The notes under the pieces: generated by a model | Told to the model about the DNA's origin: nothing | Databases searched by the model: none | Seen by the model: the letters and a program-made list of their open reading frames with translations, nothing else | Shown here: positions 29,849-57,837 of the stretch, one piece after another | How positions within the stretch are numbered: the stretch's first letter is position 1 | How the letters are laid out: every line of letters starts with the position of its first letter | Assembly: GCA_019058275.1 (NCBI GenBank) | Contig: JAHLVW010000036.1 | Coordinates: 89,322 to 153,321, forward strand | Length of the DNA: 64,000 nucleotides | DNA from: Candidatus Heimdallarchaeota archaeon | Lineage (GTDB): Archaea > Asgardarchaeota > Heimdallarchaeia > JABLTI01 | Reading direction: 5' to 3' | Made by a program: the position numbers and the translations under genes

Positions 29849-30413
29849 ATGAAATTGGTTGTTATTTTTGGTCCACCTGCTGTAGGAAAAATGGCTGTTG
29901 GTAGAGAGTTAGCAAAATTGACAGGATTCAAATTATTCCATAATCATATGACAATAGAATTAGTGATAGAATTTTTTGATTATGGTACACCAAAGTTCAA
30001 TATTCTTAATCAAGAGTTTCGACGTAGAATCTTTGAAGAAGTAGCATCAAGCGATTTGCCTGGTTATGATTTTTACCTATGTTTGGGCACTTGATGAAGA
30101 ATCTGACACAAAGTATGTTGACGGATTTACTCAATTATTCAAAGAAAAAGGCGGAGAGGTTTTTTTTGTTGAATTAGAGGCTACTTTAGAGGAACGGTTA
30201 AAGAGAAATGTTTCTGAATTACGTTTACAAAAAAACCCTATAAAAGAGATACAGAACTAAGTCAAAAACGAATGTTAAGAACTGAAAAAAAAATACAAAA
30301 TGAATACAGATAATGATTTCTTTTATCAAGAGAATTATGTCAAGATAAATAATACAAAACTTAGTGCTGAAGAAACTGCCCAACAAATCAAAAAGGAATT
30401 TAGTTTTTTGTGA
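29849..30413 (+). pseudogene. P-loop AAA-type small kinase gene broken by three frameshifts
   Basis: Two ORF-track pieces (29849-30094 and 30066-30260) and a third piece are consecutive parts of one protein of about 180 residues. N-terminal part: FGPPAVGKMAVGRELA (P-loop) and LFHNHMTIEL. Middle: FTYVWALDEES and FFVELEATLEERLKRN. Third piece KRDTELSQKRMLRTEKK, fourth piece QENYVKINNTKLSAEE to the TGA at 30411. The joins need one base removed near 30062-30066, one A restored near 30243-30250 and one base restored near 30312. The gene is decaying, or the assembly has indel errors here. Confidence 0.65.
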
Positions 30414-30496
30414 TTTTACATCAATCTAGAATTTATCTGAGATAAAAAGTATCTTAAGAACAAGAAGTAATAATATAATCATTTAATTTCGTTATG

Positions 30497-52039: not shown

Positions 52040-53203
52040 TTGTTCTCTTTAAAACCTAAAAGATTGAAATTACTATTTTCGATAATTCTTATGTTCTCAA
52101 TTAGTTGGTCGAGTATGTTAATTTTGGGTACATACTGCTTCAATCATAATGATAATTTTATTCAAAATGATGCTGATATAACAGTTAATATAACAGTAGC
52201 TGATGGACCATTAGTTGTGCAAAATGATTTTGTTTTTTTGAAGCAATGGGAAAGTACAATTATTAAAATTGATATTTCTGATATTAATAATCCTAGCTCA
52301 CCAACAAATGTTACTGACGGAGAACTTAGAACTGGTGACTATGTTGTTTATGAAAATAAGCTCTTTGTATCCACGCCAGAAAATATGTTGGTATATGATG
52401 TAACCAATCCAGGTTCAATAGGTGATCCAATCTACAATTGGTCAAATCCAGATTTTGGTAATATAATAACTAGTGCTGATTATTTCGCTATTGTAAATGA
52501 TATTGCTTACATGACTGAAAATCGAATTCTATATATTTTTGACTTCTCAGATTTATCAAATTTAACATATCTAAATTCATCAAATTTAGATATATGTTCA
52601 AATGATTTTACTTACAATAATGGTTATCTTTACTTTCCGTTAGAGCAAGAGAATCCAATTGATGAAAGCAGTTGTTACTATTTTGGTTTAGTAGATGTAT
52701 CAAATCCTTCAGTTTTGAATCCAATGATTACTTTGGAGAATGATTCAATTAGTGGCAGTTGTGATGTAGAAGTAAAAGGAAACTATGCTTATTTAACAGT
52801 AAATGATTTTGATAATCATCGATGCTTTCTAACAGTAGTTGATGTTTCTAATAAAACTCAACCTGAAAAAGTTACTTCTGTAGAACTTGGTGCAGATTAT
52901 GTACATCACATAACCATCAATGAAAATACTATCTATATTGGTTTAGACGATGAGGGATTAGCTGTAATAGATATTTCTGATCCTGATAACCCTAGTGAAC
53001 CTATCTATAATAGATTTAATAGATTTCCTTGTGATGTTCGTTATGTTTTAGTTCACAACGATTATCTACTTTTTACTTATAATCCTGGTTTAGGAATAAT
53101 CGCTCTAAGTGAAGCTTCGAAATCTAACTTAGCAACTATATTTTATCCATTAATAATAATAACAGGATTGATCTTTCCAGTTGTTATTAAAAGGAAAAGA
53201 TAG
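52040..53203 (+). CDS. LVIVD-repeat surface protein (intact)
   Basis: A 387-residue secreted and membrane-anchored LVIVD beta-propeller protein: signal segment about 8-30, repeats such as IIKIDISDINNPSSPTNV, FGLVDVSNPSVLNP, LAVIDISDPDNPSEPIY and a C-terminal helix with basic tail (FYPLIIITGLIFPVVIKRKR). Smaller relative of the broken gene at 48019. TTG start after GGAAGGAAGAGA. Probably a surface-exposed adhesin or binding protein. Confidence 0.75.
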   Translation: MFSLKPKRLKLLFSIILMFSISWSSMLILGTYCFNHNDNFIQNDADITVNITVADGPLVVQNDFVFLKQWESTIIKIDISDINNPSSPTNVTDGELRTGDYVVYENKLFVSTPENMLVYDVTNPGSIGDPIYNWSNPDFGNIITSADYFAIVNDIAYMTENRILYIFDFSDLSNLTYLNSSNLDICSNDFTYNNGYLYFPLEQENPIDESSCYYFGLVDVSNPSVLNPMITLENDSISGSCDVEVKGNYAYLTVNDFDNHRCFLTVVDVSNKTQPEKVTSVELGADYVHHITINENTIYIGLDDEGLAVIDISDPDNPSEPIYNRFNRFPCDVRYVLVHNDYLLFTYNPGLGIIALSEASKSNLATIFYPLIIITGLIFPVVIKRKR

Positions 53204-53860: not shown

Positions 53861-54676
53861 TCATCGCTTTCTCATATAACCTACTGCTAATCCTAACGTA
53901 AGTAAAGCTATAAAACCTGTTGCCCAATGAATTGATGCTTTTTGAGTACTATTCTCATTAAGTAGAATAAGATGTACCTCAGAAACTTCGCCTTCGATCT
54001 TTATATACGCATAGACATCTACTTTGTCCAATATTCCCCATTCAGTATTGTAGCTAATTTCCATACTCTGTCTAATTGTCACAAATCCTCCAACAAAGAA
54101 AAGCACATATTGATCTTCAAATTCATATCTCTGTGTAAATAAGTCGTCTGTGAGTGTTACATCAAAAACATGGGTATCATTATCGACTATATATGGTTCC
54201 ATTTCATCGTATAAGTAATCAAATGAACTTTCATTTCCAGTTGCAAATTCAAATACCGTAGGTATTACAAATAACCATGCAACAAGTATTTCATCTGTCG
54301 CATCTAGTAACAAATTCAATGATGATAGATTATCTGTTACATAGACATCATTGAGATAAAATTCTGCCCAATCTACATCAGTGAAGAATAAATCAGTGAA
54401 ACTGCTAATGTTAGCTTCATCAGGATCCTTTGTAATTTTTAATTTAAGTTGATCTCCTTCTTCTACTTGATGACCAGTTTTTAAAATCCATTCAGCTTCT
54501 TGTCCTTTTGTATCGAATTTGGCAACATCCCATACAAGTTCTTCATCTGGAACTAAATGGTCGGAATAGTAAAAATCAGTGATAACATCATTTGCTACTA
54601 AATTTCCACTACTATATGAAAATGTTAGAAATGAAATGATGAGTATACCAAAAATAATTTTGTTTTTAATTCGCAT
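53861..54676 (-). CDS. Surface protein with single C-terminal anchor
   Basis: A 271-residue secreted protein: N-terminal signal helix (IIFGILIISFLTFSYSSG), a beta-rich external domain of about 210 residues (EWILKTGHQVEEGDQLKLKI), and a C-terminal helix with basic end (GFIALLTLGLAVGYMRKR). No domain recognised. The layout matches archaeal surface proteins with a C-terminal membrane-anchor signal. Confidence 0.6.
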   Translation of the reverse strand: MRIKNKIIFGILIISFLTFSYSSGNLVANDVITDFYYSDHLVPDEELVWDVAKFDTKGQEAEWILKTGHQVEEGDQLKLKITKDPDEANISSFTDLFFTDVDWAEFYLNDVYVTDNLSSLNLLLDATDEILVAWLFVIPTVFEFATGNESSFDYLYDEMEPYIVDNDTHVFDVTLTDDLFTQRYEFEDQYVLFFVGGFVTIRQSMEISYNTEWGILDKVDVYAYIKIEGEVSEVHLILLNENSTQKASIHWATGFIALLTLGLAVGYMRKR

Positions 54677-54878: not shown

Positions 54879-55979
54879 TTATACTATTCTGATGTGGGTT
54901 TGTTCAATTGGACTTTTTATTGGTTCACCATATGGCAGGTATTTATCAATCAATGCTGAAACATCATTATAGTTCATATCTGCGTTATAATTTTCCATCA
55001 CTCTTTTCAAACCAAGATGGATTTGCTCTGTAGGGTACTTGCATGCAATAAAACCTGCAAATTTACCTTCTTTATTAAGAATAAGCGAATATTCGCCCAA
55101 ATCAATTTCTCGTGGAAAGACCTCCTCTCCAACTATTTCTGTTGCGAATGCTGCTATTGCTGTAGCAACTCCAGAAATTAGATGCTAATTCATTTTGTGT
55201 GTTGTTGAGAAGATACCTTGGTAGAGGTTTAATCCATGTTCATTATAGATGTTTATTGAAATTACTTGTGAAGAACCATAAAGAGAAGTTTTACCTCCTA
55301 ATAACATCCCTATAGCAAGTAAACCTGCCCCAATGCTAGTAGATACAAGTTCAGCATGAAGAAAGGCTTTCTGGAATAATACTATGAATCTTAATACATA
55401 AATTCCGATGCTCACAAAGAAAGCAATTATCACTCCAGCAATCAAGAAGTTAGTACTCTTCTTGTATTTTTCATCAATTATTGAAAGCTATCGAATGAGA
55501 TGCGTTAGAAAGTAAGTTCCTGATAGAATCACGCTGCTTGCTAAGCAGATTATCCATACAATGTTAGCTGATGCTTTTGTAAGATCCAAATCAGCGTCAT
55601 AAACAACTGAAAAAACATCAGGAGAGAGTGTTAATGCAAATACCCCGCCAATAACTAGGAAAACGACATATAATGTAACTCGTTTCAAAGGTATTTGACC
55701 ACTTAAAGAGCTAGCAAAAAGAACATTACATATCATTGCCAAACCGTTAGCAATAACTCCAATAACAATAAAATAATAAGAAATCTTGACATCAATAGGA
55801 TTACTAAAAATTGTCTGGAACAAACCAGCAAGAATCCATAAACCAATTAGTACTTCTAAACCTAGGAAATAATATAACGGAGTTGATTTTAGACTCCATT
55901 GTTTTACAATAATTATAATTATACTTACAATGATTATTACTAAAGAGATAGAACTGTAAATAATAGATAAGTAATTCAT
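54879..55979 (-). CDS. Seven-helix membrane protein with cytosolic sensor-like domain, interrupted by two in-frame TAG codons
   Basis: ORF-track pieces 55488-55979, 55185-55445 and 54879-55100 are all in one frame. The whole, 366 codons plus TAA, is open except for TAG at 55488-55490 (THLIR[TAG]LSIIDEKYKKS) and 55185-55187 (STTHKMN[TAG]HLISGVA). Five helices precede the first amber and two follow it; a cytosolic domain of about 120 residues (QVISINIYNEHGLNLYQGIF, LISGVATAIAAFATEIVGEEV, LGEYSLILNKEGKFAGF) ends the protein. Both ambers would fit Gln in the ancestral protein. No indel, TAA or TGA interrupts. It is either recoded or a young pseudogene. Confidence 0.6.
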
Positions 55980-56127: not shown

Positions 56128-57837
56128 TTATGCTTTTTTTAGATCATTATTTTTCTGTAAAAATTCTTCAGCTAAACGCCATTGAGTAATGTCTTCACCA
56201 GAACAAATCGTTGCTTCTACTACTCCTTCATCATTTTTTATGATACTATTATGCCAGGAAATAAGTCTTTCATCATAATCTTTAGTTAAAATATAATTTT
56301 CAAAATAATCTTCTGGAGAAATCTCCCCATTAATTGCTTTATTGAAAGTGTCTCTCACTCCAGCTTTTACTCGTTCAGGAAGACAATAATCAATCCAATT
56401 TTTGCCAATAAGCTCATTTTTAGTATAACCAAAGATTTCACATCCACGTTTATTTATTTGAACTATGTTGGCGTTCCTATCAAGAACAACTAAAAGGGCA
56501 CCAGCCATTTCAAAATACTTTTGGGCAATATTACGTTCTTTCAGTAGTTTTTGTTCAAGTTCAGCTCTTTTTGTTACCTCAACGATTATTAGTGCAATTG
56601 CAGAACTATCTTCAGAAGAAAATTTCTTTAATTGAGTGGAAACCCAGATTGTTCTTTTATCTTGAGTAATTATTCTGCAATAAAATTCAGGAACTTCACC
56701 TTCTTCTTCAACGATTTTGAATTGCTCCATGACATTATCTACATCTTCAGGATGAATGATATTTCTGAGATGAGCTAATTCCATAGAAGAAATTTTAGTA
56801 TGAGTATAACCAGAATGTTTGATTATAACATCATTTGCAAAAATTACTTTACAATCCTTTATGATCATTATCCCCGCTACAGATTGTTCAATTAATGAAC
56901 GGAACTTATCCTCACTTTGCACTAATTTCCTTTCAGTGTTTTTACGATTGGTAATGTCAATAATTATTCCCTCACAATTGCCTTCTTTTGGATAATAGCT
57001 AGCTGAATGACTGCCCCAAACAGTTGAACCATCCCTGCGCTTTAATTGAACTTCATAATCAGTAATTTTACCTTGAGTTTTCAAAACTTCAATAATATGT
57101 TTTCGATCCTCAAGATTCAAGTAAAAATCAAAAACCTTAGATTTTTCTTTTAATTCCTTTACAGATGAATAGCCTGCAGCAAGAGCAAGTTTCAAATTTG
57201 CTTCTAATATTTCACCAGTTTCAATATCTGTTCGAAATACTCCTGCATTTAGATTTTCAAATAAATTGCTATACTTAATTTCAGTCTCTTTATATTCTGT
57301 ATTATCTATTATAACTGATGAAATGGATACAAGTTTACCTTCGATATTATAAGCGCCAATGTTGAATTGAAGACACCATCGTTCTGCTCCATCTTTCTTA
57401 ATTATTTTATAATCCATCAATTTTGGAACAATTCCACTTTCCATTTCATTATAGAATCTCATGTAATATTCACGAAAATCTGGATGAACTATAGAAGATA
57501 TAAAATTAGGGATTTTCTTCCATTCAGTTATCGAATATCCACTTAATTCAGCAAGAAATTTATCAATTAAAGTCATTTTTCCAGAAGGAATATCCATCTT
57601 GATAAAACCTCTTACTCTTTTAGTAAGCTGTTGATAGAGATTATCAAGTTCAGAAATCTGTTGTTCTAATTGAGCTACTTGAAATTCTAATTTTTTCTCA
57701 GCAATTAATTTGTCTGTTTCAGACAAATTATTTATTTTAACTGTAGAACATTCAAATCCATTTTCATTTAGTAATGTTATTGCTTCATCTATTTTTTTTG
57801 CTTCTAATTGTATCACTTTCAAATTAATTTCTCCCAC
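56128..57837 (-). CDS. Protein with four PAS domains and no output domain
   Basis: A 569-residue cytosolic sensor protein. A coiled-coil-like start (about 45-75) is followed by four PAS/PAC units: about 80-190, 190-305, 310-430 and 435-560 (SGYSITEWKKIPNFISSIVHPDF; YSSVKELKEK...LNLEDRKHIIEVL; FRSLIEQSVAGIMIIKD; YFEMAGALLVVLDRNANIVQI). No histidine kinase, GGDEF, or other output follows the last PAS. It would signal by protein contact. GTG start. It lies 148 bp upstream of the amber-interrupted membrane protein on the same strand, so the two may work together. Confidence 0.75.
   Translation of the reverse strand: MGEINLKVIQLEAKKIDEAITLLNENGFECSTVKINNLSETDKLIAEKKLEFQVAQLEQQISELDNLYQQLTKRVRGFIKMDIPSGKMTLIDKFLAELSGYSITEWKKIPNFISSIVHPDFREYYMRFYNEMESGIVPKLMDYKIIKKDGAERWCLQFNIGAYNIEGKLVSISSVIIDNTEYKETEIKYSNLFENLNAGVFRTDIETGEILEANLKLALAAGYSSVKELKEKSKVFDFYLNLEDRKHIIEVLKTQGKITDYEVQLKRRDGSTVWGSHSASYYPKEGNCEGIIIDITNRKNTERKLVQSEDKFRSLIEQSVAGIMIIKDCKVIFANDVIIKHSGYTHTKISSMELAHLRNIIHPEDVDNVMEQFKIVEEEGEVPEFYCRIITQDKRTIWVSTQLKKFSSEDSSAIALIIVEVTKRAELEQKLLKERNIAQKYFEMAGALLVVLDRNANIVQINKRGCEIFGYTKNELIGKNWIDYCLPERVKAGVRDTFNKAINGEISPEDYFENYILTKDYDERLISWHNSIIKNDEGVVEATICSGEDITQWRLAEEFLQKNNDLKKA

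What the first reader, a model, noticed from the sequence alone, without database searches (positions are those of the whole stretch)
54879..55979. Seven-helix receptor-like protein with two in-frame amber codons
All 366 codons are open apart from TAG at 55488 and 55185, in the loop between helices 5 and 6 and in the cytosolic domain. Both would replace Gln-like positions, and flanking sequence continues without any loss. This is the best candidate here for programmed amber decoding, or for a very recent double nonsense event.
Basis: partly seen in the sequence, partly recalled or inferred. Interest (0 to 1): 0.65.

Follow-up and report, generated by a model that had tools for sequence, protein, structure and literature searches.

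The report
Recently broken archaeal receptor gene
In one Heimdallarchaeota genome a gene for a seven-helix membrane protein with a GTPase-regulator-like tail has recently picked up two stop codons that no relative has, and the genome shows no sign of machinery to read them through, so it looks like a freshly broken gene and not a new genetic-code trick; the intact protein family is the more interesting part.

Summary
In detail: on the minus strand, 55979 to 54879 is a 366-codon gene, open except for TAG at codons 164 (55490-55488) and 265 (55187-55185). The amber-decoding reading does not. The nearest relative, at the same locus (93% protein identity), is intact. Site 1 is Gln in all 15 homologues that cover it; site 2 is Glu in near homologues. 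Of 26 near-full-length homologues in 228 Asgard genomes, only this copy has internal stops. No pyrrolysyl-tRNA synthetase exceeds its cut-off here or in 37 relatives; no CUA-anticodon tRNA was found. TAG ends ordinary genes at the expected rate. 83 ABC domains carry no in-frame stop. Interrupted PAS domains in this genome carry TAA (3) or TGA (1), never TAG. The other amber candidate (30497) is a decayed remnant, and its neighbour is frameshifted. N/S on this branch (9/10) resembles the intact sister's (14/11), so the loss looks recent. Best reading: a young pseudogene.

The intact family is more interesting: seven helices fused to a longin/roadblock-like domain resembling Rab-activator subunits (Mon1-Ccz1, TRAPP), full-length in two Heimdallarchaeia families. 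It may be a small-GTPase-linked receptor; that is inferred, not shown.

The parts
54879..55979 (-). 366-codon gene of the 7TM-longin family, interrupted by two in-frame TAG codons (recent pseudogene)
55488..55490 (-). in-frame TAG 1, codon 164, near the cytosolic end of helix 5; Gln in all 15 homologues that cover the site
55185..55187 (-). in-frame TAG 2, codon 265, first residue of the first helix of the C-terminal domain; Glu in near homologues, Gln in one
55278..55973 (-). seven predicted transmembrane helices (residues 3-234)
   Evidence: AF2 model; weak TM-score matches to rhodopsins and GPCRs
54939..55265 (-). longin/roadblock-like domain (residues 239-347), topology b-b-a-b-b-b-a-a
   Evidence: AF2 models; Foldseek against PDB (Mon1-Ccz1 1.3e-4, BLOC-3, TRAPP, Ragulator, MglB, Asgard Roadblock3)

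Best explanation
The locus is a recently inactivated copy (pseudogene) of a Heimdallarchaeia gene for a seven-helix membrane protein with a cytosolic longin/roadblock-like domain. Two single-base nonsense substitutions, both giving TAG, arose in this lineage after it split from its nearest sampled relative. Translation is expected to stop at codon 164, near the end of helix 5, so no GTPase-regulator-like domain is made. Shown: the two stops, their absence in every relative, an intact orthologue at the same locus, no PylS above cut-off, and TAG used as an ordinary stop. Inferred: that termination happens in the cell, and that the intact protein is a receptor acting on small GTPases.
For: Intact ortholog at the same locus in G003/CSMAG_1263: 93% aa identity, shared downstream neighbours. 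Sense codons at both sites in all homologues that cover them. Of 26 near-full-length homologues in 228 Asgard genomes only this one has internal stops. No PylS above cut-off in 38 genomes, with one control genome above it; published work infers that Heimdallarchaeia lost Pyl (PMC9723677). About 35 tRNAs read, none with anticodon CTA. TAG ends 8 of 39 coding-like ORFs, as composition predicts. 83 ABC domains: no in-frame stops. PAS domains in this genome: 4/34 interrupted, 3 TAA + 1 TGA + 0 TAG, versus 1/129 in four relatives, Fisher p = 0.007. A nearby kinase gene (29849-30415) is open in G003 but frameshifted here. The gene has no confident copy in three of eight same-genus relatives, and only its 3' part remains in a fourth.
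Against: The rest of the frame is undamaged and N/S on this branch is still low (9/10; P = 0.006-0.03 against neutrality along the whole branch), so a functional gene with readthrough is not formally excluded. The neutral fraction of the branch is poorly bounded (0 to about 0.75). Both stops are TAG, although for each site's codon in the nearest relative TAG is the only stop one base away. Raw reads could not be checked.
Confidence: 0.85

Rival explanations
1. The TAGs are decoded (pyrrolysine, or Gln/other through a suppressor tRNA, or leaky readthrough) and a full-length protein is made.
For: Frame intact beyond both stops; low N/S on the branch. TAG 1 sits at an invariant Gln, so Gln insertion would restore it. 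Stop-bearing prokaryotic genes with low dN/dS have been argued to reflect frequent readthrough (PMC7918605).
Against: No PylS above cut-off; no CUA tRNA among those read or by pattern; TAG is an ordinary stop in the window; no TAG inside 83 ABC or 34 PAS domains; neither TAG occurs in any relative; interrupted PAS genes carry TAA and TGA, not TAG.
Confidence: 0.07
2. Assembly, sequencing or strain-mixture artefact: the population carries an intact gene and the consensus is wrong at one or both bases.
For: The genome is a draft (118 contigs, contamination 6.78%); the nearby kinase differs from G003 by small frameshifts; the excess of interrupted PAS domains over relatives could partly reflect base errors.
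Against: Two independent substitutions, not indels, in otherwise clean coding sequence; 83 ABC domains show no stop, so the overall error rate is low.
Confidence: 0.06
3. A shortened protein (residues 1-163, about five helices) is made and kept as a functional product, possibly with a separate ORF restarting downstream (55185-55445).
For: The 163-aa ORF with its ATG start is intact; an 86-aa ORF lies between the TAGs.
Against: TAG 2 also kills the downstream part; no relative has a five-helix-only version among the matches; no conserved internal start was seen.
Confidence: 0.02

Closest known systems
Ordinary prokaryotic nonsense pseudogenes
   Same: Lineage-specific stops at positions conserved in intact orthologues; same-genus genomes that lack the gene; other decayed genes close by.
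   Different: Two stops but no frameshift or deletion, so decay is at an early stage.
Pyrrolysine (amber) decoding in archaea, including Asgard Sifarchaeia (PMC9723677)
   Same: In-frame TAG in an archaeal gene.
   Different: No PylS above cut-off, no CUA tRNA found, gene is not a methylamine methyltransferase, the TAG is not conserved, and Pyl is inferred lost in Heimdallarchaeia.
Asgard longin/roadblock proteins (PMC10933270: longin-GTPase and longin-TRAPPC3 combinations)
   Same: C-terminal domain has the longin topology; best PDB matches are Rab-activator and Ragulator longin/roadblock subunits. A more distant homologue of the domain lies between two Ras-family GTPase genes.
   Different: Here the domain is fused to a seven-helix membrane region, a combination not mentioned in the passages read and with no Pfam family at its cut-off.
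GPCRs and microbial rhodopsins
   Same: Seven helices; loop charges suggest N-terminus out and C-terminus in; weak fold matches (TM-score about 0.4 by query, E about 0.01-0.05).
   Different: No significant fold match and no Pfam match; the invariant Lys of helix 7 (K230) is near the helix end, not mid-helix as in retinal proteins. Membership not claimed.

Membership tests
Pseudogene | Intact orthologue at the same locus with sense codons at the stop positions | tested here: met
   G003/CSMAG_1263
Pseudogene | Lesions restricted to this lineage | tested here: met
   1 of 26 near-full-length homologues in 228 genomes has stops
Pseudogene | Relaxed selection after the lesion | tested here: inconclusive
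   Branch N/S 9/10 versus 14/11 in the sister; too few changes
Pseudogene | No functional product | not testable with these tools
   needs transcript or protein data
Pyrrolysine/amber decoding | PylS present | tested here: not met
   TIGR02367: no match above cut-off in 38 genomes; one of the 14 control genomes is above it
Pyrrolysine/amber decoding | tRNA with CUA anticodon | tested here: not met
   genome about 93% complete and tRNA list not complete
Pyrrolysine/amber decoding | TAG rare or absent as a true stop | tested here: not met
   8 of 39 coding-like ORFs in the window end in TAG, (Sifarchaeia break this rule, PMC9723677)
Pyrrolysine/amber decoding | In-frame TAG conserved in orthologues | tested here: not met
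Longin/roadblock domain proteins | b-b-a-b-b-b-a(-a) fold matching known longin/roadblock structures | tested here: met
   (34 PDB hits at E <= 0.001)
Longin/roadblock domain proteins | Sequence-profile match to a known longin or roadblock family | tested here: not met
   No such Pfam or NCBIfam match for the A2 homologues; so the domain is called longin/roadblock-like by fold only
Longin/roadblock domain proteins | Binding to a small GTPase | not testable with these tools
   only indirect: a distant domain homologue flanked by two Ras-family genes
GPCR / rhodopsin | Significant fold or sequence match to the family | tested here: not met
   No Pfam hit; Foldseek E about 0.01, TM-score about 0.4

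The most novel reading that the evidence does not exclude
The intact gene family encodes seven-helix membrane receptors that signal through a fused longin/roadblock domain to small Ras/Rab-like GTPases: a receptor-to-small-GTPase architecture in Heimdallarchaeia, analogous to but not shown to be homologous with eukaryotic GPCR signalling.
Probability: 0.35. Interest if true: 0.7.

Novelty: new member of a known kind. Interest (0 to 1): 0.3.

Why it matters
As an amber-decoding claim it should be dropped: showing that saves effort and records a clean test (PylS, tRNA, stop usage, conservation, stop types in other interrupted genes). The gene family is worth keeping. A seven-helix membrane protein fused to a domain shaped like Rab-activator subunits, in Asgard archaea of the Heimdallarchaeia class, would be a directly testable link between membrane sensing and small-GTPase control.

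Tried and rejected
Global TAG reassignment: rejected. Pyrrolysine: rejected. Suppressor tRNA: patterns TCTAR..GTTCRANYC gave only chance matches and ordinary tRNAs; the two tRNA-like leads (C59:8304, C33:42142) have 3' tRNA sequence but no recognisable 5' half or CUA anticodon stem. Recent gene exchange with G003: the low dS of this gene (0.12) first looked odd beside its two downstream neighbours (0.7), but other orthologues give 0.14-0.26, so the neighbours are the outliers. Codon-usage scan for interrupted genes in the window: too weak, missed this gene. First alignment used wrong strands and was discarded.

Full report
Observation. The minus-strand frame 55979 to 54879 is as described: 366 codons, ATG start, TAA end, interrupted only by TAG at codons 164 and 265. 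There is no tRNA gene in the window. No Pfam family matches.

Relatives. The window lies on contig C22 of a 4.12 Mb, 118-contig draft genome (completeness 93%, contamination 6.8%). Named relatives are Candidatus Heimdallarchaeota MAGs. The best relative, G003 (CSMAG_1263), has an intact gene with 93% protein identity; the two genes downstream of it (271 aa, and the LVIVD-repeat gene) are shared. In MAG_147 the order CBS - amidohydrolase - Mut7-C - AMMECR1 - this gene matches the window, judged from ORF sequences (window Pfam; MAG_147 ORFs); in the window a PAS-domain gene (56128-57837) lies between AMMECR1 and this gene.

The two sites. Codon 164 is Gln in all 15 homologues that cover it; codon 265 is Glu in the near homologues, Gln in one, and Gly or Thr in the distant ones. 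A profile search of 228 Asgard genomes found 26 matches covering nearly the whole profile; only the window's copy has internal stops. A TAA reported in one copy (G030:C1) is not inside the match.

Timing. G000 versus G003: dS 0.12, dN 0.035, ratio 0.29; 0.18 before TAG 1, 0.17 between the stops, 0.79 after TAG 2 on few changes. Polarised with outgroups, this branch has 9 nonsynonymous, 10 synonymous and 2 nonsense changes; the sister branch has 14 and 11. Whole-branch neutrality is disfavoured (P = 0.006-0.03, depending on kappa), but a neutral fraction from 0 to about 0.75 is compatible. The stops are therefore probably recent; the data do not by themselves separate 'recent pseudogene' from 'still read through'.

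Decoding machinery. No match to PylS above cut-off in this genome or 37 relatives; weaker hits lie in open frames mostly near 500 aa and are taken to be other class II synthetases (inference). A published survey infers loss of Pyl on the branch to Heimdallarchaeia (PMC9723677). 33 tRNA matches were taken out of the genome, plus candidates from T-arm patterns; about 35 tRNAs could be read, including intron-containing ones, none with CTA. The tRNA list is not complete, because some tRNAs have introns that ARAGORN does not resolve.

Is TAG special here? Coding-like ORFs in the window end TAA 22, TGA 9, TAG 8, close to the composition expectation. None of 83 ABC-transporter domains has an in-frame stop. 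Of 34 PAS domains 4 are interrupted, by TAA (3) and TGA (1), never TAG; four relatives have 1 of 129 (Fisher p = 0.007; two of the four are on one contig, and counting three loci gives p = 0.03). So some sensory genes in this genome carry nonsense lesions of any stop type, or some base errors. These point to gene decay (or error), not to TAG decoding.

The protein. AlphaFold2 with 12 sequences gives seven long helices and a b-b-a-b-b-b-a-a domain (pLDDT 74.6). The domain alone (pLDDT 84) matches longin/roadblock structures: Mon1-Ccz1 (E 1.3e-4), BLOC-3, TRAPP, Ragulator, MglB and an Asgard roadblock protein, with 34 hits at E <= 0.001. No sequence profile in Pfam or NCBIfam identifies it. The helical part has only weak matches to rhodopsins and GPCRs. 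Loop charges read from the sequence suggest N-terminus out, C-terminus in (inference). Weaker homologues of the domain occur in a TPR protein and in a protein encoded between two Ras-family GTPases. Literature searches found Asgard longin fusions to GTPases and TRAPPC3 (PMC10933270); no paper held all of 'Asgard', 'longin' and 'seven transmembrane'. The function of the intact family, a membrane receptor acting on small GTPases, is inferred.

Verdict. A recently broken gene of an interesting family; amber decoding not supported.

Noticed in passing
window 29849-30415: P-loop kinase-like gene, open in G003 (L167) but frameshifted here.
   Followed up: partly
   Followed up: yes
window 53861-54676 and 52040-53203: Two genes with dS about 0.7 to the sister genome, while other orthologues show 0.12-0.26: replaced, paralogous or fast-evolving.
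   Followed up: no
G000 C55:207227, C101:16718, C62:1647 and C62:2943: Four PAS domains interrupted by TAA (3) or TGA (1); relatives have 1 in 129.
   Followed up: partly
L150 (C59:8304) and L152 (C33:42142): tRNA-like 3' ends (Ile-like and Leu-like) with no 5' half found nearby: relics, integration scars, or split tRNAs.
   Followed up: no
L058 and L106: tRNA-Asn and tRNA-Pro(CGG) that seem to have extra introns in the D arm, not resolved by ARAGORN.
   Followed up: no
L165:3848-4366 (12R2_15): Only the 3' part of this gene (longin-like domain) survives, joined to an unrelated N-terminus.
   Followed up: partly
L157 (MAG_147): Two 7TM-longin genes close together on the same strand.
   Followed up: no
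G082 (family f16, outside Heimdallarchaeia), C5:1264142 and C3:180055: Two 375-388-aa relatives matching part of the helices plus the domain, so the architecture may reach beyond Heimdallarchaeia.
   Followed up: no
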